Assembly: GCF_021646685.1 (NCBI RefSeq)
Contig: NZ_JAKJHW010000002.1
Coordinates: forward strand, 806,001-870,000
Direction of reading: 5' to 3'
Source: Pseudalkalibacillus salsuginis
GTDB taxonomy: Bacteria > Bacillota > Bacilli > Bacillales > Fictibacillaceae
Length of the DNA stretch: 64,000 bases
Made by a program: the position numbers and the translations under genes. Below, piece after piece: positions 11,052-19,739 of the stretch (its first letter is position 1; every line of letters begins with the position of its first letter). Below the pieces are notes generated by a model that was given only the letters and a program-made list of their open reading frames with translations, searched no databases and was not told where the DNA came from.

Positions 11052-11311
11052 AAACCCACGATGAGTACCTTACACCCGGTTTTTCGCTTCATAAGGTACT
11101 CAGAAACCCGCGATGAGTACCTTACACCCGGTTTTTCGCTTCATAAGGTACTCAGAAACCCTCGATGAGTACCTTACGCCCGGTTTTTCGCTTCATAAGG
11201 TACTCAGAAACCCTCGATGAGTACCTTACGCCCGGTTTTTCATTTCGTAAGGTATTCAGAAACCCTAGCCAAGTACTTTACATCCAATTTCCACTTCATA
11301 ATTTACCATTT
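11052..11311. repeat. 52-bp tandem repeat array, about five copies, each with an internal hairpin
   Basis: Exact 52-bp spacing: copies begin at 11052, 11104, 11156, 11208 and 11260. The first three differ by only a few bases, the fourth by several more, and the fifth is strongly degraded. In each good copy GAGTACCTTA is followed about 20 bases later by its perfect complement TAAGGTACTC, so every unit can form a 10-bp stem. The array sits between the divergent DUF2512 gene and the giant gene, ending about 150 bp before the latter. Confidence 0.95.
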
Positions 11312-11465
11312 ATGCACCTCATCAACTCCACAACACAAACCAGTCATACACCACAGTACCTACAATCGTATGGCATAAGTACTACTCTACGACTTTCCAT
11401 TAGCAGATTGTTTGGTAAGTGAATAACATACCTAGAAATGTTATGTGAGGAGATGAAAAAATGAG

Positions 11466-14400
11466 ATGTCTTTTCCAGAAAACGTTCAGTATCTGCCGAT
11501 AAGACTTGATGATGACCGTTTTATGTTTGATGCATCGGGTGATGAAAGTCCAATTTCGACGGACATTGTAGGAAATCAAACGTATCCCTCTTTATTTTTT
11601 GCTTATGATGGCACTAACGTCTATTTCCGTTTACGTCTAAACGGAGATCCAAGAAATATAGCTCAAACTTCATTCCGGAGTTTTTCTTGGGGGATTCTGA
11701 TCAATTCAAGCGGTGAAGCTGGAACATACGATTACCTTTTAGCCGTAAATGGTTTGAGAGCACAGTTGAACCTGATCAAAAATACAGTGAAGGAATTCAA
11801 TTCGTGGAATGATCCTGCTGAAGGATTGGATGGTCGAGGGGAACCGAGTTACAGCCGGCCAATCATCAATTTCGATGTAGCCCGGGTTACCCCGGCTGAT
11901 TCGAACTTCAGTTCAAACCCGGATTTCTTCCTTGATTTTTTCATTCCTGCCTCTACCCTGTTTTCCATTTTAGGAGTAACAGAAGTAAGTGCGTTACAGT
12001 TCATCGGCTTCACCGCTACAAACGAAAACAATTATAACAAAGATTCGTTACGATTTATTGAAGGGTTCCAATTTGTAGAGACTCTCTCTGAGCCTGTTTC
12101 AGTTTCAGATTCTGATATAAGGGCCGATCTGAATGTCGAAAAAACACTTCTAAGTGGTCCGTCTTCTGTGATAGCTGGGCAATTCAATACGTATAGAGCC
12201 CGTTTGACAGTGTCTAATCCAGGTGAAAGCGCAGCGACAAATGTTACTGTAAATGACATTATTGGATTGGATAATATAAGCAGTTTCACTATAGAGTCAG
12301 TTGGACTAGGAACTGCAACGTTCAATACCACTGCCAAGTCGCTGAATTGGACGATCGGAAACCTTTCAGCGGGGGCTTCCGTATCACTAATCTTCAATGT
12401 GGAGGGGGCATTCACTACATCCGGAACCCGGATCTTCGAAAATGCAAAAGCATCAGGGAATGATCTATCAACCGGTGGTGTGATTACGCCAGCTACAGAA
12501 GTTACAAATCTACAAGTTATTGAAACTGGTGGATTATCAGGGACCGTTTTAGATGGGAACACTGGTTTATCCTTATCGGGCGTTACGGTGGAACTTCTTC
12601 AAAATGGTACCGAGATAGGGACGACTTCGACGAATGGAAGTGGAGACTATAGCTTTACTTCGATTGAACCCGGGAGTTATACGGTTCGTTTTTCGAAGAC
12701 TGCATATACAACTGTTACTCAGCCAGTAACAGTTTCGTCCAATAGAATCAGTACGTTGAACTTAGCCCTCCCGCCGCTTCCAGGCTCAATTAATGGAAGT
12801 GTCACTGCGCAGGGTGGTGGTGTGCTTCAGAACGCACGAGTTACCTTGACGGACACATTCGGAGCGTTGATTGGCCAAACGGTCACAGATGCAGGAGGTT
12901 CATATTACTTCCCCCAAGTAAAACCAGGTCATTATACGCTCAGTGTTTCACGTGATAATTACCAATCAAAAACAGAAGGTGTGGAAGTATCACCAAATAG
13001 TGTTTCCACGGTGAACTTTGTCCTTAGTCCAAACCCTGCGACTGTTAATGGGACTGTGGAAAATACGACAGGACAACCGATTGCAGATGCTCTTGTCCAA
13101 GTTAAAAATGAAGCAGGCATTATTGTAGCCTTTACCTTTACGGATACAAATGGGCAATTTGCGTTCAATTCAATAGCACCTGGCACCTATTTCCTCCAGG
13201 CGAGCGCGGATGATTTTGCCAAGCAGACACTGGGTACCACCCTTAGTGCAGGTGAAACCGAAACATTAACGTTCCGGCTTGTTACCGTTTTCGGTACATT
13301 CACCGGAACGGTCAGGGATGAAAGAACGAATATACCCCTTCCATCTGCAAATGTCCGTGTCATCGATCAATCTGGAATCGACGTCACAAGTACGGTTACA
13401 AGCAGTAATGGATCCTATACAATTGGCAGCTTACGCCCTGGAAGCTACAGTATCATCTTTTCTGCAGATGGATATGGCTCTACAATCCTAGGCGGGGTCG
13501 TTGAGGAAAACCAATCAACCACCGTCAATGCAACCATGCAACGGCTTGTCGGTTCTATCGATGGATCAGTTACAGATCAAACCGGGAATCCGATTTCGGG
13601 AGCGCTTGTCCGATTGTTTTCCGAAAATGTGTTAGTAAGTTCGATCGTTACGGACAATACGGGCAGATTCGGATTCTCCAACCTTACACCTGGATCCTAT
13701 TCGGTTACGGTCAGTGCAGAAAACTTCGCAACACACTCTCAAGGTGTCATTGTTCGTTCGGACGAAACCTCAATAGTTGAAATTACAATGACGGCTCTGG
13801 CTGGGAATATAGCTGGAAACGTGACTGACAACCAGGGAAATCCAATAGGAGGGGCTGTACTCGTTTTACGCCAGGCTCAGTCGGATATTATCGTTGCCAG
13901 AACGGTCACGAATAATGAAGGTGTATATTCTCTTCCTTCCATAGAACCAGGTATGTATCAATTGGCGAGCCTGGCGACTGACTTCCAAAGTATCGTTACG
14001 GGAGTGAATGTGCTTTCGAATCAAACGAGTATTGCTAACTTCCAATTGGTTCCCCAACCTTCTGCAATTACAGGTTCTGTCCTGAATGGTACCACGGGGG
14101 ACCCGATCGCTGGGGCGTCTGTTGAGGTTCGTATTCTTGATTTGAATGGAGCTGTCATTTCGAATACGTTTACTGATCCTGGCGGGCAATTCCTCGTTAC
14201 GGGGTTAAGCCCAGGCTTTTATAGCATCGTCGCATCCGCAAAGGATTTCCAGACGAATGCCGCCTCCATCGTACTTGGTCCAAACGAACTTGAAACAGTC
14301 AATATAAGCTTATTACCTAGTCCAGGTGCTCTTACTGGAACGATTCGAAATGCACAAACAGGTGAAACCTTAACAGGGGCTGAGATTTTAATCAACAATC

Positions 14401-17400
14401 AGAACGGGGTAAGGGTACAATCGACCCTATCAGATTCAGAGGGAGAATACTTGTTTAATGGCCTCCCCCCGGGAGATTATACGATTGTCGTTTCAGCCGA
14501 AAGCTTCCAGACTGCGATCACAGGTGTCGTGGTCGAACAAAACTATACGAAGGTGCGGAACATCTCATTAGAGCCGAATCCGGGAAGTATTTCAGGTGCT
14601 GTGACCCCAATAGTAGACAATACCATTATCAATTTGTTTACGAGTGACAGTGTGTTGGTCTCCTCAACTGTCGCAACACAGTCGGGTGAATTCATATTTC
14701 CAAACTTGGCACCTGGTTCCTACGTCATCTCTGCAGCTGCACCTAATTTTGCTGCAGATGTAGTCGGTGCGGCTGTCATATCGAATCAGACGACTGAAGT
14801 AACACTTTCGTTAATCCCGGACCCATCGATGATTTCCGGGCAAGTTTCAGGTACAGATGGACAGCCGATTGGAAATGCGATCATCAGGGTCATCGACTTG
14901 AATGAAAATGTGATCAGGACCGGGGCTACAGAAGCAAATGGAAGGTATTCAATAGGAAATTTACCGCCAGGATCGTTTCAAGTCGTTGTCAGTGCTCCAA
15001 ATACAGGAAGCCAGATGACTGGAGTCACACTCACTCCAGGGTCTTCACAATCACTGGATTTTGTGCTGACATTTGATCCAGGTTCGGCTATCGGTGAAAT
15101 CTTCAATCCAAATGGGGATCCAATTTCAGGTGTGACGGTAATTTTACGTGATGAGCATGGAGGGTTTATTGCTTCGGTCCTTTCAAACAGCTTCGGTGCA
15201 TATAAATTTGAGGATTTGTCACCGGGAAGTTATAACATTGTCGCGACAGCACCTAACTTCTCCACAGAAACCATCGGTGTGATTATCCAGAGCAATCAGG
15301 TTTCATCTGCGAATATAACGTTGACGAATGTAGTCGGTGATATTAGCGGTCGAGTAGTTGATGAGAACGGTCAGCCGATTACGGGAAGTAACATTCAACT
15401 GAAACTGTTGAATGAAGTCAGTTTTCTTCTGCAAACCGCTGTCGCACAGTCGGATGGGACCTTCCGTTTCGATGACCTGGCACCGGGACGTTATTTGATC
15501 AACGCGAGTAAGGAAGGATTTGCTGCCAAAACCGTTTCAGTCGATGTTACTGCAGGCAGTACAACAAACGTAACCGTATCATTATCGCCAATTACATCTA
15601 CGTTGGCCGGTATTGTAAGGAATGAACTAACTGGTGACCCTATTGCTGGGGCAAGGGTTGAAGTGAATTCACTGACTGGAATCTTTCTGGCTTATACCGT
15701 AAGTAATCAAGACGGTACGTTTGAACTGACCAACCTGCCACCTCAAACGGTTGTAGTAAGTATTTCTGCATCAAGTTTTGGTTCCGATGCCTTGACAGTG
15801 AACTTAATTCCAAATGAGACAACGAACGTAACCGTTCAACTCCATCCGAATCCTGGTTCTCTGACGGGTTTCATAACAAATATTATCTCAGGGAATGCGA
15901 TTCCGGGTACAGTCGTTGTCATATCAACCGTCACGGGATCAGAAATCACCCGTACGACAACTGATCTCTCGGGTCAATATTTAGTTGAAGGATTGGAGCC
16001 AGGCAATTATCGGGTCGTTGCAGGTGGAATGGATGTCTCCACTCAAACAGCTACCATCACTATTGAACCTGAAGCTACTGCTATCCTTAGCTTTGCATTG
16101 ACTCCAATTGTCGGGAGTATAAATGGAATCGTGCGAAATCAGGAAACTGGAGAGGCAATTGCAGGAGCGACGGTTTTTGTGAGGTTGCTATCACCATCAG
16201 GTCCACTCATTGCCTCTACCCTGAGTGACGATGACGGATATTACACGGTCTTTGGATTAGAACCGAACTCATACACACTCATCGGGTTTGCAAAAGGATT
16301 TGGAACAGCTGAGGCGACCACTATGGTTATAGCAAATGAAAGCAAAACGGTTGATCTATTGCTGCCGCAAAACCCCGGTTTTGTAAATGGGGTTGTCCGC
16401 AATAGTGAGACGGGTGAGGTAGTTCCAAATGCAACTGTCATTCTATATACGGAGACGGGTATCCGCATCTTATCGATTGATACTGATCAGAATGGTTTCT
16501 ATCGTTTCCCTGGGGTTACACCTGATCAATATCGCCTGGTCGTCGTCAAAGAAAATTTCAACCGTCCTGTAGTCGGAGTCACGATCGTATCTGATCAAGT
16601 AGAAACGGTGAATATCAATATTCAGCCGAACACAGGAAACATTGGTGGTAAAGTGACGGATAGCCAAACCCATGCACCTATTGTCGGAGCGCTTGTACTT
16701 GTCTATAAGTCGACTAGTATTGATCCCGTCGCTAGAGCCGTTTCGGATAGTTTAGGGAATTACTCAATTACAGGACTATTGCCAGGTGTATACAATGTTG
16801 TTGCCTCCGCACTCAAGTATTCTCAAGAATCGGTCGGGGCGACGGTAATGTCGGGCGAAACATCAATAGCCAATCTCTCTTTGGATCCATTGCCAGCTTC
16901 GGTCAGTGGAACTGTAACTGACTCAATTGGAGATCCTATAGCGAATGCGACTGTTAAATTAATCGACCTGAATAATGTTGTCGTCGGGTTTGCTACAACA
17001 GATAGCAACGGAAACTATGCGATAACGAACTTGAAAAGGGGGACATATCTTGTACTTGTCAAGGCGTCAGGGTTTGCAGCAGAATCTACAGGCATAACCC
17101 TTGAACAAGGAGAGGCCTTAAATGACCTCGATTTTTCCTTGACTGCAAATCCTGGGTCTATCAGAGGTTTTGTCCTTGAAGTTGAAACTGGTGAGCCTCA
17201 GGAAGACGTGACTGTTTCCGTTCTAAATGGAAATGGCATTGTAATTGCCACGACAGTAACGACACAAACAGGATCCTATTTATTTCAGGAATTACCCCAA
17301 GGTTTCTATACGCTGATCGCTATAAAAGATGGGTTTGCACAAGCAACTGTTGGAGTAAATGTTGTAAGCGAACAGGAAACAAATGTGAATTTATTTTTAC

Positions 17401-19739
17401 AATCGAATCCAGGTGAAATTAGAGGAACAGTACTGGATGAACAAGGGCGGCCAATCATAGGGCGAAATACGTCTATAAGATTGATGACTCCGGAAAATAT
17501 CATCCTTCAGACCGTACTGGCCTCAACTGATGGGGTATTTGGTTTCATCAATCTCTCACCAGGAAACTATTTGCTTAATGTAGCCGCTAATGGTTATGAA
17601 ACCGTTACTGTCGGGGTTATTGTACGGCCAGATGAAACAACGAATGTTCCTTTCGTTTTGCAACCTTTAAGTAGCACGATCGTAGGTATTGTCCTAAGCC
17701 GGTTGACCGAAGAACCAGTACCTGGTTCGGAAATTACAGTCGCGAATGAAGATGGAATCAGTATCGCTGCAGGGCTTGCGAATCAAGACGGCAGGTTCGT
17801 TATTACTGATTTACCTCCTGGATCGTTGAATGTATCAGCAAGGAGGGAAAGATTCGGAAGTACTTCCGTTGGTATTGTGGTTGATCCTGGTGAACAAGTG
17901 GAGACAGAACTGATATTGGCTCCTGAACCGGGGTCTCTTAACGGGGTCATTACAAATCGTCAGACCGAAGAACCAATTCCTGGTGCGGCAGTTCAAGTTC
18001 TCGATCGGACACAGGTAGTCCTACACACCGTGTTATCGGATAACAACGGCTTTTACCAGGTAACTGGGTTGGAGCCTGGCAACTACCAATTGATTATTAG
18101 CAAATTGAATTTCAGTACTGAATCGTGGAGTACGGAAGTCGTTCCCAATGAAACGACGACAAATGATTTTGTCTTATTACCGAACCCTGGTGCTGTAGCG
18201 GGGGAGGTATTCATGGACAATGATGAGACAGGTGCTATATCTCTTGGGCTTACAGAAGCAAACGAAAACGGGACCCCGATTGTGGGTGCCACCATTATCG
18301 TACGATTGTTCTCACCAGCTGGTCCAATCATCGCTTCAACGGCTACTAATTTCCAGGGGAGATATGTCATCAATGGACTGACTCCTGGTGTTTATACGTT
18401 TATAGCTAGTAAAGAAGGTTTCAGGAATGCCGATGCTAGCGATGAAGTCTTCAGTGACCAAGTAACCGAACAAGATTTCCTATTATCTCCACTACATGCC
18501 TCTGTCTTTGGACGCGTTACAAGTGCAGTTACAGGGGAAGGGCTGCCTAACACTCGCATCCGGCTTACGAATGCAGGAGGAACGGTTGTGAAAGAAGTCC
18601 AGACTGACATTAATGGTAACTACTTGCTCAATAAAATCGAGCCAGGTGTTAATGATCTTGTTGCATTGAACCCTGAGTTCCAAAATGGCTATCAACAATT
18701 TACCATTGAAAACCAGGAAACGCGTGAAATTAATTTCGCCCTAAATCCGTTGCCAGGACGGATTGTTGGAACGGTAGCCGACATGAACAGTGATCCGATC
18801 CCTGGCGCTATCCTGGTCGTGTTAAATAACGAAAATAGACCGATTACCAATGCCATAACTGACCAAAATGGAAATTATACGATTGAGGGTCTTGCTCCTG
18901 GTGAATACACGGTAAGAGCAACAGCATCCAACTTCATATCCAAGGCAGTATTGGAAACGGTTTCCCCTAATGAAACGACAACAGTTTCCTTCCAGTTGGA
19001 ACCTAATCCGGCTTCAATTAGAGGATTTGTCACCGATTCAGAGGGGAATCCGGTTCGAACGGCATCTGTCAGTGTGTTCGATGAAAACGGGCTGTTAATT
19101 GGTCGAGGAGCAACAGATTTGAATGGGGAGTATGTAATTGGAAATCTGCCGCCTGGAGAAGTTGAGGTATTAGCCAGTGCAAGCGGCCTTACACCAGTTA
19201 CTCGGATCGTCATTTTAACCGCTGGTGAGCAAACGATTGTCTCCTTTACACTTAGTCCACAGCAAGTTCATTCCACCATCCGTGGGGAAGTCATAGATGC
19301 AACAACAGGAAATCGCATTGATGTAGCGTTTGTTGTCCTCCGTATGCTAGATGGAACCATAATCGATTCGATTACGACCACCGATGGACTGTTTGCATTT
19401 ACAGGACTGGAGGCTGGAACGTACCGAGTAAATGCCGCAGCAAGTGGTTACAATCCATCTACCGAGATGGTTAACGTAAATGAAGGGGAAACCGCGTTCA
19501 TCGTCCTAGAATTGACAAAACGATCATTAATTATTGGCGGGAGAGATCGATTTATCCTTGTCGGGAGTAAAGGTCCATTATGTTTAACGGGAGCAGACTG
19601 CCCGACAATCTTCACCTTACTTTGTACTGATGATCAATCTAGATGTGGTACCTTCGCCTATCAAGTCGGGACACTCTTTGGTACAGAGACACGGATATTA
19701 ATAGTGGATCTATCCAGGTTCGAGCTAGTGCGAGTTTAA
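11466..19739 (+). CDS. giant protein with about 27 carboxypeptidase-regulatory-like repeats
   Basis: 2757 residues. Residues 1-215 form a unique N-terminal domain. About 228-350 is a DUF11-type domain (ARLTVSNPGESAATNVTVND). From about 356 to 2682 I count 27 modules of about 80-90 residues, each of the form (S/T)xxGxVxxxxGxPIxGAxVxV...TxxxGxYxxxxLxPGxYxxxxSAxxF..., the CarboxypepD_reg/Cna-B-like beta-sandwich. The last 75 residues form a distinct tail with four Cys (PLCLTGADC, LLCTDDQSRC). There is no signal peptide, LPXTG motif or membrane segment, so it is either intracellular (for example deposited on the spore by the mother cell) or exported by an unknown route. ATG 11466 is the only upstream start in frame; GAGGAG lies 13 nt away. 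A terminator follows. Confidence 0.9.
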   Translation: MSFPENVQYLPIRLDDDRFMFDASGDESPISTDIVGNQTYPSLFFAYDGTNVYFRLRLNGDPRNIAQTSFRSFSWGILINSSGEAGTYDYLLAVNGLRAQLNLIKNTVKEFNSWNDPAEGLDGRGEPSYSRPIINFDVARVTPADSNFSSNPDFFLDFFIPASTLFSILGVTEVSALQFIGFTATNENNYNKDSLRFIEGFQFVETLSEPVSVSDSDIRADLNVEKTLLSGPSSVIAGQFNTYRARLTVSNPGESAATNVTVNDIIGLDNISSFTIESVGLGTATFNTTAKSLNWTIGNLSAGASVSLIFNVEGAFTTSGTRIFENAKASGNDLSTGGVITPATEVTNLQVIETGGLSGTVLDGNTGLSLSGVTVELLQNGTEIGTTSTNGSGDYSFTSIEPGSYTVRFSKTAYTTVTQPVTVSSNRISTLNLALPPLPGSINGSVTAQGGGVLQNARVTLTDTFGALIGQTVTDAGGSYYFPQVKPGHYTLSVSRDNYQSKTEGVEVSPNSVSTVNFVLSPNPATVNGTVENTTGQPIADALVQVKNEAGIIVAFTFTDTNGQFAFNSIAPGTYFLQASADDFAKQTLGTTLSAGETETLTFRLVTVFGTFTGTVRDERTNIPLPSANVRVIDQSGIDVTSTVTSSNGSYTIGSLRPGSYSIIFSADGYGSTILGGVVEENQSTTVNATMQRLVGSIDGSVTDQTGNPISGALVRLFSENVLVSSIVTDNTGRFGFSNLTPGSYSVTVSAENFATHSQGVIVRSDETSIVEITMTALAGNIAGNVTDNQGNPIGGAVLVLRQAQSDIIVARTVTNNEGVYSLPSIEPGMYQLASLATDFQSIVTGVNVLSNQTSIANFQLVPQPSAITGSVLNGTTGDPIAGASVEVRILDLNGAVISNTFTDPGGQFLVTGLSPGFYSIVASAKDFQTNAASIVLGPNELETVNISLLPSPGALTGTIRNAQTGETLTGAEILINNQNGVRVQSTLSDSEGEYLFNGLPPGDYTIVVSAESFQTAITGVVVEQNYTKVRNISLEPNPGSISGAVTPIVDNTIINLFTSDSVLVSSTVATQSGEFIFPNLAPGSYVISAAAPNFAADVVGAAVISNQTTEVTLSLIPDPSMISGQVSGTDGQPIGNAIIRVIDLNENVIRTGATEANGRYSIGNLPPGSFQVVVSAPNTGSQMTGVTLTPGSSQSLDFVLTFDPGSAIGEIFNPNGDPISGVTVILRDEHGGFIASVLSNSFGAYKFEDLSPGSYNIVATAPNFSTETIGVIIQSNQVSSANITLTNVVGDISGRVVDENGQPITGSNIQLKLLNEVSFLLQTAVAQSDGTFRFDDLAPGRYLINASKEGFAAKTVSVDVTAGSTTNVTVSLSPITSTLAGIVRNELTGDPIAGARVEVNSLTGIFLAYTVSNQDGTFELTNLPPQTVVVSISASSFGSDALTVNLIPNETTNVTVQLHPNPGSLTGFITNIISGNAIPGTVVVISTVTGSEITRTTTDLSGQYLVEGLEPGNYRVVAGGMDVSTQTATITIEPEATAILSFALTPIVGSINGIVRNQETGEAIAGATVFVRLLSPSGPLIASTLSDDDGYYTVFGLEPNSYTLIGFAKGFGTAEATTMVIANESKTVDLLLPQNPGFVNGVVRNSETGEVVPNATVILYTETGIRILSIDTDQNGFYRFPGVTPDQYRLVVVKENFNRPVVGVTIVSDQVETVNINIQPNTGNIGGKVTDSQTHAPIVGALVLVYKSTSIDPVARAVSDSLGNYSITGLLPGVYNVVASALKYSQESVGATVMSGETSIANLSLDPLPASVSGTVTDSIGDPIANATVKLIDLNNVVVGFATTDSNGNYAITNLKRGTYLVLVKASGFAAESTGITLEQGEALNDLDFSLTANPGSIRGFVLEVETGEPQEDVTVSVLNGNGIVIATTVTTQTGSYLFQELPQGFYTLIAIKDGFAQATVGVNVVSEQETNVNLFLQSNPGEIRGTVLDEQGRPIIGRNTSIRLMTPENIILQTVLASTDGVFGFINLSPGNYLLNVAANGYETVTVGVIVRPDETTNVPFVLQPLSSTIVGIVLSRLTEEPVPGSEITVANEDGISIAAGLANQDGRFVITDLPPGSLNVSARRERFGSTSVGIVVDPGEQVETELILAPEPGSLNGVITNRQTEEPIPGAAVQVLDRTQVVLHTVLSDNNGFYQVTGLEPGNYQLIISKLNFSTESWSTEVVPNETTTNDFVLLPNPGAVAGEVFMDNDETGAISLGLTEANENGTPIVGATIIVRLFSPAGPIIASTATNFQGRYVINGLTPGVYTFIASKEGFRNADASDEVFSDQVTEQDFLLSPLHASVFGRVTSAVTGEGLPNTRIRLTNAGGTVVKEVQTDINGNYLLNKIEPGVNDLVALNPEFQNGYQQFTIENQETREINFALNPLPGRIVGTVADMNSDPIPGAILVVLNNENRPITNAITDQNGNYTIEGLAPGEYTVRATASNFISKAVLETVSPNETTTVSFQLEPNPASIRGFVTDSEGNPVRTASVSVFDENGLLIGRGATDLNGEYVIGNLPPGEVEVLASASGLTPVTRIVILTAGEQTIVSFTLSPQQVHSTIRGEVIDATTGNRIDVAFVVLRMLDGTIIDSITTTDGLFAFTGLEAGTYRVNAAASGYNPSTEMVNVNEGETAFIVLELTKRSLIIGGRDRFILVGSKGPLCLTGADCPTIFTLLCTDDQSRCGTFAYQVGTLFGTETRILIVDLSRFELVRV

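What the first reader, a model, noticed from the sequence alone, without database searches (positions are those of the whole stretch)
11466..19739. 2757-residue tandem beta-sandwich protein with no export signal
Seen: about 27 CarboxypepD_reg-like modules, a DUF11-like domain and a unique N-domain, but no signal peptide, wall anchor or membrane helix. Known: proteins built of such repeats are usually secreted stalks or adhesins. Inference: in a spore-former, a leaderless giant filament could be laid on the spore surface by the mother cell.
Basis: partly seen in the sequence, partly recalled or inferred. Interest (0 to 1): 0.75.

Follow-up and report, generated by a model that had tools for sequence, protein, structure and literature searches.

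The report
Giant leaderless spore-surface stalk protein
A giant bacterial protein made of 27 bead-like units has no export signal, but its far end is a small cysteine-bearing piece related to spore-shell proteins, so it is probably a long hair that the mother cell pins onto the spore from inside.

Summary
The 2757-residue ORF (11466-19739) is real: a conserved N-domain, a DUF11 domain and 27 CarboxypepD_reg modules, without leader, LPxTG or clear membrane helix. Its profile matches small cysteine-rich stand-alone proteins (hhalign 98.9%), themselves remote relatives of the CotY/CotZ/ExsY crust/exosporium proteins (93.1%); the direct cap-to-CotZ link is weak (25%). Leaderless homologues with the same N-domain end in other spore-surface domains: BMQ_0737-type in Rossellomorea and two further families, Coat_X (CotX/CotV) in 7.4-kilo-residue Priestia megaterium plasmid proteins, whose genes lie 14-24 kb from Coat_X genes with a polysaccharide cluster between. 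Of 36 C-termini examined, 28 carry one of these three caps. All 16 strong N-domain hits among 398 class genomes have SpoIVA, but span only four genera. Two distant leader-bearing relatives have S-layer-type ends instead. Best reading: a mother-cell-made stalk fixed to the spore surface by an interchangeable C-terminal cap. There is no expression or localisation evidence; the sigma-K/E promoter scan was negative.

The parts
11449..11452 (+). GGAG ribosome-binding-site-like sequence, 13 nt before the start codon
   Evidence: read directly from the sequence
11466..12122 (+). N-domain, residues 1-219, leaderless, strongly conserved in the family; predicted beta-rich with low confidence; the proposed distal end
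   Evidence: no Pfam hit
12126..12458 (+). DUF11 beta-sandwich domain, about residues 221-331
   Evidence: Pfam PF01345 3.3e-10; predicted with pLDDT mostly about 90
12525..19514 (+). 27 tandem CarboxypepD_reg modules, about residues 354-2683; the stalk, without cysteine
19515..19736 (+). C-terminal cap, about residues 2684-2757, related to CotZ-like small Cys-rich proteins; holds all 4 cysteines (codons 19581-19646); the proposed spore anchor

Best explanation
The gene makes a spore-surface stalk. Inferred: it is expressed in the mother cell during sporulation, stays in the mother-cell cytosol because it has no leader, and is captured at the forespore surface by its C-terminal cap, which co-assembles with the cysteine-rich crust/exosporium lattice (by CotZ-like packing and perhaps disulfides). 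The cysteine-free rod of 27 beta-sandwich modules then projects outwards, roughly 100 nm if each module spans about 4 nm (a recalled figure), and presents the DUF11 and N-domain at the tip. After mother-cell lysis it is the spore's outermost hair or adhesin. Shown by calculation: the architecture, the lack of a leader, the cysteine placement, the homology of the caps to spore-surface families (indirect for the window's own cap), the change of cap between clades, and the neighbourhood in Priestia. Not shown: timing, location, orientation, disulfides and ligand.
For: All four cysteines lie in the last 52 residues. Cap versus stand-alone proteins: hhalign 98.9%; stand-alone versus 30 CotZ/PF10612 proteins: 93.1%, with 40 column shuffles of the CotZ alignment reaching at most 1.6% (no shuffle control was run for the first comparison, but a profile of 12 stand-alone proteins finds 14 of 36 giant C-termini at E 1e-7 or better). 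In the family, the 13 N-domain genes are the same 13 long ORFs that carry the cap. Stand-alone CotZ-like hits (E up to 0.01) occur in 11 of 11 giant-carrying and 12 of 23 other family genomes (Fisher p 0.005, not corrected for relatedness; the own-genome hit is weak, E 0.007, but reads as a 10-cysteine protein). Rossellomorea homologues end in a domain that matches NF052457 (BMQ_0737 morphogenetic spore coat protein): 64.0, 72.1 and 63.7 bits against a cut-off of 71, E at most 2.5e-17; hhalign 98.4% to the Fictibacillaceae BMQ_0737 proteins, 20 shuffles at most 2.5%. Further giants L189, L190 and L191 give 66.9, 61.4 and 48.4 bits. Priestia giants (7366 and 7457 aa) are leaderless; L198 ends in Coat_X PF07552 (43 bits, cut-off 27), and both match a Coat_X profile made from small proteins of the same plasmids. 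On these plasmids a polysaccharide cluster follows the giant gene, and Coat_X 'spore coat protein' genes lie 14-24 kb downstream of it. Of 36 C-termini, 14 are CotZ-like, 12 BMQ_0737-like, 2 Coat_X and 8 none of these. All 16 strong hits in 398 class genomes are SpoIVA-positive. The window's genome has SpoIVA, a BMQ_0737 protein and a small CotZ-like protein in a glycosyltransferase island. Two weak N-domain relatives, in which the N-domain follows a hydrophobic leader, end in S-layer-type repeats (SLH confirmed by Pfam for one, L131).
Against: The direct cap-to-CotZ comparison gives only 25%, with an unconvincing alignment, and the short proteins of the window's own genus score below shuffles against CotZ (2.5% vs up to 7.4%); no Pfam family matches the cap; the window's genome has no PF10612 gene. 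The sigma-K/E promoter scan shows no enrichment over shuffles. The window's neighbours (UptA, UppP, MATE, GNAT and others) are not recognisable spore genes, and the genome's BMQ_0737/polysaccharide island is about 780 kb away on the same contig. Eight of 36 C-termini lack a recognised spore cap, including Brevibacillus-type and the f44 6778-aa ORFs. Nine of 27 complete leaderless members have 1-9 cysteines outside the last 250 residues (L033 has 9). Six of the seven fused BMQ_0737-like caps tested fall below NCBIfam's cut-off.
Confidence: 0.7

Rival explanations
1. It is a spore-layer protein but not an outward hair: it works as an internal tether or spacer (for example between coat and crust/exosporium), with the conserved N-domain fixed in one layer and the cap in another.
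For: The N-domain is the most conserved part (65 invariant columns of 221 in 12 sequences) while caps vary between clades; some clades have no recognised cap, so the N-domain could be the essential anchor.
Against: Lengths range from about 1900 to 7457 residues, loose for a fixed gap between layers. BMQ_0737 and CotX1/CotX2 of B. megaterium, whose domain types serve as caps elsewhere in the family, are described as binding anti-GFP antisera strongly in immunolabelling and hence outermost (PMC4656864, passages).
Confidence: 0.2
2. It is a vegetative extracellular adhesin released by lysis or an unknown route; the resemblance of its end to spore proteins reflects a general lattice domain.
For: CarboxypepD_reg, SdrD_B and SpaA-like modules are typical of secreted stalks (the typicality is recalled). 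Distant relatives with the N-domain after a hydrophobic leader occur with S-layer-type ends. No sporulation promoter was found.
Against: No leader in the strong family members examined; three different spore-surface caps; spore coat genes in the same plasmid island in Priestia.
Confidence: 0.08
3. It is a phage, tailocin or other mobile-element structural protein.
For: Its size and repeats; homologues lie on Priestia plasmids.
Against: No N-domain match in 50,697 phage records and no relative confirmed in viral contigs; none of the 10 window neighbours scanned matched a phage family.
Confidence: 0.01

Closest known systems
F-Anchor-3 of Clostridium aceticum (F-ENA system; PMC11952670, passages read)
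   Same: A spore-surface protein with DUF11 modules whose CsxA-like domain is proposed, from AlphaFold3 models, to be built into the exosporium lattice so that the rest projects outwards: the same logic of lattice domain plus beta-sandwich spacer.
   Different: It holds up an ENA pilus through DUF4183 domains and has 0-4 DUF11 spacers; here there are 27 to over 70 CarboxypepD_reg-like modules (motif counts) in one chain, a different N-domain, and CotZ-like/BMQ_0737/CotX caps. DUF4183 was not among the 25 of 36 Pfam rows shown for this protein.
BclA-type exosporium nap hairs (PMC4674009 and PMC11952670, passages read)
   Same: Made in the mother cell without export by a leader (recalled), long thin hairs on the spore surface.
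   Different: BclA is a collagen-like rod whose N-terminus docks to the exosporium (ExsF/BxpB); here the chain is a string of beta-sandwiches and the proposed anchor is C-terminal.
CotY/CotZ/ExsY crust and exosporium lattice proteins (PF10612; PMC8546674, passages read)
   Same: Remote homology of the cap by way of stand-alone cysteine-rich proteins; cysteine-based self-assembly would be the attachment chemistry.
   Different: The cap is about 70 residues, lacks the N-terminal CxC half, has four cysteines, and does not match PF10612 directly.
BMQ_0737 of Bacillus megaterium (NF052457; PMC4656864, passages read, citing Manetsberger 2014, not read)
   Same: A domain of its kind is the C-terminal cap of the Rossellomorea homologues.
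   Different: A stand-alone protein without a stalk; it is not the cap of the window's protein.
Clostridium taeniosporum ribbon appendage proteins (PMC5749712, passages read)
   Same: Spore appendage gene cluster in which four of nine proteins hold DUF11 within repeat regions, with putative sigma-K promoters.
   Different: Multi-protein ribbons in Clostridium; no relation in sequence was tested here.

Membership tests
CotY/CotZ/ExsY (PF10612) | Direct match of the cap to the family model | tested here: not met
   0 of 14 cap sequences match any Pfam family at E up to 10, within HMMER's filters; no PF10612 match in the window's genome.
CotY/CotZ/ExsY (PF10612) | Homology by profile comparison | tested here: inconclusive
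   Cap to stand-alone 98.9% and stand-alone to CotZ 93.1% (shuffles at most 1.6%), but direct cap to CotZ 24.8% with a doubtful alignment, and the own-genus short proteins do not exceed shuffles against CotZ.
CotY/CotZ/ExsY (PF10612) | Self-assembly into a two-dimensional lattice on the spore | not testable with these tools
   Needs protein.
BclA-like nap protein | Collagen-like GXY repeats | tested here: not met
   The chain between DUF11 and cap is CarboxypepD_reg modules.
BclA-like nap protein | Exosporium leader motif (TIGR03720) | tested here: not met
   Not among the 15 NCBIfam families matched at E up to 1.
ENA appendage subunit or anchor | DUF3992 or DUF4183 domain | tested here: inconclusive
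   N-domain: no Pfam match at E up to 1; cap: none at E up to 10. For the whole protein only 25 of 36 Pfam families were shown.
Secreted wall-anchored MSCRAMM-type adhesin | Signal peptide and wall anchor | tested here: not met
   3 in-frame codons upstream of the start, no LPxTG, low N-terminal hydropathy; no signal-peptide predictor was available.
Leaderless N-domain/CarboxypepD_reg family described here | Conserved N-domain at the very start, followed by DUF11 and tandem modules | tested here: met
Spore-surface protein | Presence on spores and sporulation-specific expression | not testable with these tools
   Promoter scan showed no enrichment; needs experiment.

The most novel reading that the evidence does not exclude
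A previously undescribed class of single-chain giant spore hairs (about 1900 to 7457 residues, perhaps 70-300 nm) shared by Fictibacillus, Rossellomorea, Metabacillus, Brevibacillus, Priestia and relatives. Built without any secretion system, they share one N-terminal tip domain and are fixed to whichever cysteine-rich or CotX-type lattice the species uses by an interchangeable C-terminal cap; the cap is thus a natural, modular spore-display anchor.
Probability: 0.55. Interest if true: 0.8.

Novelty: new variant of a known kind. Interest (0 to 1): 0.72.

Why it matters
Spore hairs and appendages described in the papers seen here are collagen-like naps, ribbons, and ENA-type pili assembled from many small subunits. 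Here one polypeptide would be the whole hair, and evolution has joined the same stalk to three different spore-surface families. That gives a testable rule for how leaderless giants are placed on spores, marks the CotZ-like, BMQ_0737 and CotX domains as portable anchors, and offers an explanation for some giant 'carboxypeptidase regulatory-like' proteins in Bacillales that carry no functional annotation.

Tried and rejected
Promoters: best sigma-K-like and sigma-E-like sites in 32 upstream regions were no better than shuffles (mean 6.31 vs 6.03 and 7.94 vs 7.88). The window does have a full sigma-K-like match at -183, but 6 of 60 shuffles reach it. The shuffle was a crude within-12-base one, so this neither supports nor excludes sporulation control.

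N-domain fold: low-confidence model (mean pLDDT 69.6, several segments under 50). The listed Foldseek and VIA-align rows are mostly or wholly matches to the DUF11 part, so no fold is claimed for the N-domain.

Spore-former restriction: 16 of 16 strong hits are SpoIVA-positive against 268 of 398 (p 0.0015), but by genus 4 of 4 against 124 of 146 (p 0.52), so this is weak evidence.

Phage origin: no match. Literature: no listed paper on this family in the searches (0 papers; 3; 7; 4; 4; 10 listed of 165), in an open-licence library only.

Full report
What is there. The window holds one open frame of 2757 codons at 11466-19739. It reads as an N-domain (1-219), a DUF11 domain (about 221-331), 27 CarboxypepD_reg modules and a last ~70-residue domain. 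The protein is acidic (pI 4.3), 289 kDa, has 1.2% lysine, no LPxTG and no strong hydrophobic segment. Three codons separate the ATG from the upstream in-frame stop, and leaderless family members begin with the same M-x-[FY]-P-type start with 0 to 41 spare codons; the two Priestia members read in full have 4. A missed leader is therefore very unlikely, although no signal-peptide predictor was at hand and a crude hydropathy value of the first residues overlaps little but is not negligible in some members (0.62-2.09 in 36 members, 8 above 1.6, against 2.57-2.64 in two leader-bearing relatives). The gene is single copy in its genome (the two further matches are weak repeat matches), a 4.29-Mb assembly that contains SpoIVA.

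The overlooked end. All four cysteines of the protein fall in the last 52 residues. A profile of this end from 14 family sequences finds 39 places in 17 of 34 genomes of the same family. Thirteen are the ends of giant ORFs, exactly the 13 genes found by the N-domain. The other 26 lie in open frames of 69-165 codons; 17 of them were read and give cysteine-rich proteins of roughly 90-140 residues. Profile-profile comparison gives 98.9% for the end against the small proteins, and 93.1% (E 3e-7) for the small proteins against 30 PF10612 (CotZ) family members, where 40 column shuffles reach at most 1.6%. The first comparison had no shuffle control, but a profile of the 12 stand-alone proteins finds 14 of 36 giant C-termini at E 1e-7 or better. 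The direct comparison of the end with CotZ gives only 25% and is misaligned. The relation to CotY/CotZ/ExsY is thus by way of the stand-alone proteins. No Pfam or NCBIfam model reaches its cut-off on the small proteins tested (6 and 5 proteins).

In the window's own genus the small proteins are shorter (7 examined). They match the Fictibacillus stand-alone proteins at 99.0% and the giant's end at 84.6%, but CotZ itself at only 2.5%, below the best of 20 shuffles (7.4%). The window's genome has one (99 aa, 10 cysteines; found at E 0.007) in an island with glycosyltransferases, GalE and UDP-galactopyranose mutase. A BMQ_0737-family morphogenetic spore coat protein lies about 17 kb from it; that family is present in 34 of 34 family genomes.

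Other members carry other spore caps. The Rossellomorea homologues end in a ~180-residue cysteine-rich domain without a Pfam family that matches NF052457, 'BMQ_0737 family morphogenetic spore coat protein', at 64.0, 72.1 and 63.7 bits in three tested (cut-off 71). It also matches the Fictibacillaceae BMQ_0737 proteins at 98.4% (20 shuffles at most 2.5%). A profile of this cap over 397 genomes of the order finds matches in 94, among them 13 in open frames above 2000 residues. I fetched three of these 13 (L189, L190, L191), and all three begin with the family's N-domain. BMQ_0737 and the CotX proteins are described as the outermost labelled proteins of B. megaterium spores (PMC4656864, passages).

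Six Priestia megaterium plasmids and one Paenibacillus plasmid carry the N-domain. Two Priestia genes read in full code for 7366 and 7457 residues, leaderless. The 7366-residue protein ends in a Pfam Coat_X (CotX/CotV) domain at 43 bits against a cut-off of 27, and both match a Coat_X profile made from small proteins of the same two plasmids. Directly downstream of the giant come wecB, epimerase, glycosyltransferase and sulfotransferase genes, and 14-24 kb downstream several genes annotated 'spore coat protein', five of the six of which match Coat_X. In B. megaterium QM B1551, two indigenous plasmids are needed for exosporium assembly or stability (PMC4674009, passages).

In all, of 36 C-termini examined with profiles made from stand-alone proteins only, 14 are CotZ-like, 12 BMQ_0737-like and 2 Coat_X. 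Of the 8 left, one (Metabacillus) ends in a HYR domain and seven (three Brevibacillus-type, two f44, one f75, one Paenibacillus) have no recognised cap. On the N-domain tree of 37 rows the cap labels need 6 changes, where 5 is the least possible and shuffles average 19.2, so caps follow clades closely. Near-copies make such clustering easy, several inner branches are weak, the CotZ and BMQ labels are not each a single clade, and the window's own row is on a long branch. BMQ_0737 and CotZ-like profiles show no relation to each other; Coat_X was not compared with them.

Distribution. N-domain profile in 398 genomes of the class: 18 hits, 16 strong (E about 7e-91 or better) and 2 weak. All 16 strong ones have SpoIVA (268 of 398 do), but they fall in four genera, twelve of the 16 being from one. 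The two weak ones (G207, G482) have a hydrophobic leader before the N-domain and S-layer-type C-terminal repeats; SLH was confirmed for the first by Pfam, the second by eye. G207 is SpoIVA-positive, G482 is not among the positives. This is a natural contrast: with a leader, a wall-type end; without a leader, mostly a spore-surface cap. One contig binned to a Moorena cyanobacterium carries a Bacillaceae-like copy (L026) and looks like a binning error.

How it probably works. Most likely the mother cell makes the chain during sporulation, and the cap is captured by, or co-assembles with, the cysteine-rich outer lattice of the forespore. [quoted passage not shown] The cysteine-free rod then points outwards with the N-domain at its tip. 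Steps shown: architecture, homology of the caps (indirect for the window's own), cysteine placement, neighbourhood in Priestia. Steps inferred: timing, place, orientation, bonding. Orientation is the least sure, since the N-domain is the most conserved part and some clades have no recognised cap.

Against. No sporulation promoter signal; none of the 10 window neighbours scanned is a recognisable spore gene; CotZ homology is indirect; 9 of 27 complete leaderless members (window included) have cysteines outside the last 250 residues, L033 nine of them; 6 of 7 fused BMQ_0737-like caps are below the curated cut-off though at E about 1e-12 or better; 8 of 36 C-termini have none of the three caps.

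Relation to known systems. The nearest in logic is F-Anchor-3 of Clostridium aceticum, DUF11 modules with a CsxA-like domain proposed to insert in the exosporium lattice (PMC11952670, passages). BclA hairs are nearest in role, and C. taeniosporum ribbon proteins in the use of DUF11 (PMC5749712, passages). None is described there with this kind of stalk and caps. Searches of the open-licence library listed no paper on the family.

Verdict. It is a new variant of a known kind (spore-surface hair or appendage).

Noticed in passing
window 11052-11266: About 4.1 tandem copies of a 52-bp unit (95% matches) lie just upstream of the gene; purpose unknown.
   Followed up: no
window 11461-11502: A second ATG 5 bases before the gene's ATG, nearer to GGAG (8 nt), opens a 13-codon frame that overlaps the start of the giant gene; chance or a translational control (read).
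   Followed up: no
L127, L128, L129 (G338, G320): A 6778-residue leaderless ORF with the same N-domain and no cysteine in the first ~5900 residues read in G338; its end has no recognised cap.
   Followed up: partly
L036, L037, L038 (G027): One genome of the same genus has three copies of the giant, two of them in tandem.
   Followed up: no
L172 (G005); L166, L194 (own genome): Stand-alone CotZ-like genes and the BMQ_0737 gene share an island of glycosyltransferases and epimerases, probably a spore-surface polysaccharide locus; a sulfate adenylyltransferase was identified in the matching island of L167.
   Followed up: partly
L192:2341-4899 (G763): An 853-aa protein joins FG-GAP-like repeats (by eye) to a BMQ_0737 domain (116.7 bits, above cut-off): another fusion to this spore domain.
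   Followed up: no
L031 (Metabacillus halosaccharovorans DSM 25387): The giant homologue is split into two overlapping frames in this record, by sequencing error or decay.
   Followed up: no
model of the cap (residues 2669-2757): The predicted cap resembles Sm/SH3-like barrels, with the B. subtilis crust protein CgeA (9l9d) among rows of like score; if real, it would suggest ring-forming barrels in the spore crust.
   Followed up: partly
L131, L132 (G207, G482): Distant relatives of the N-domain occur in leader-bearing proteins with S-layer-type ends.
   Followed up: partly
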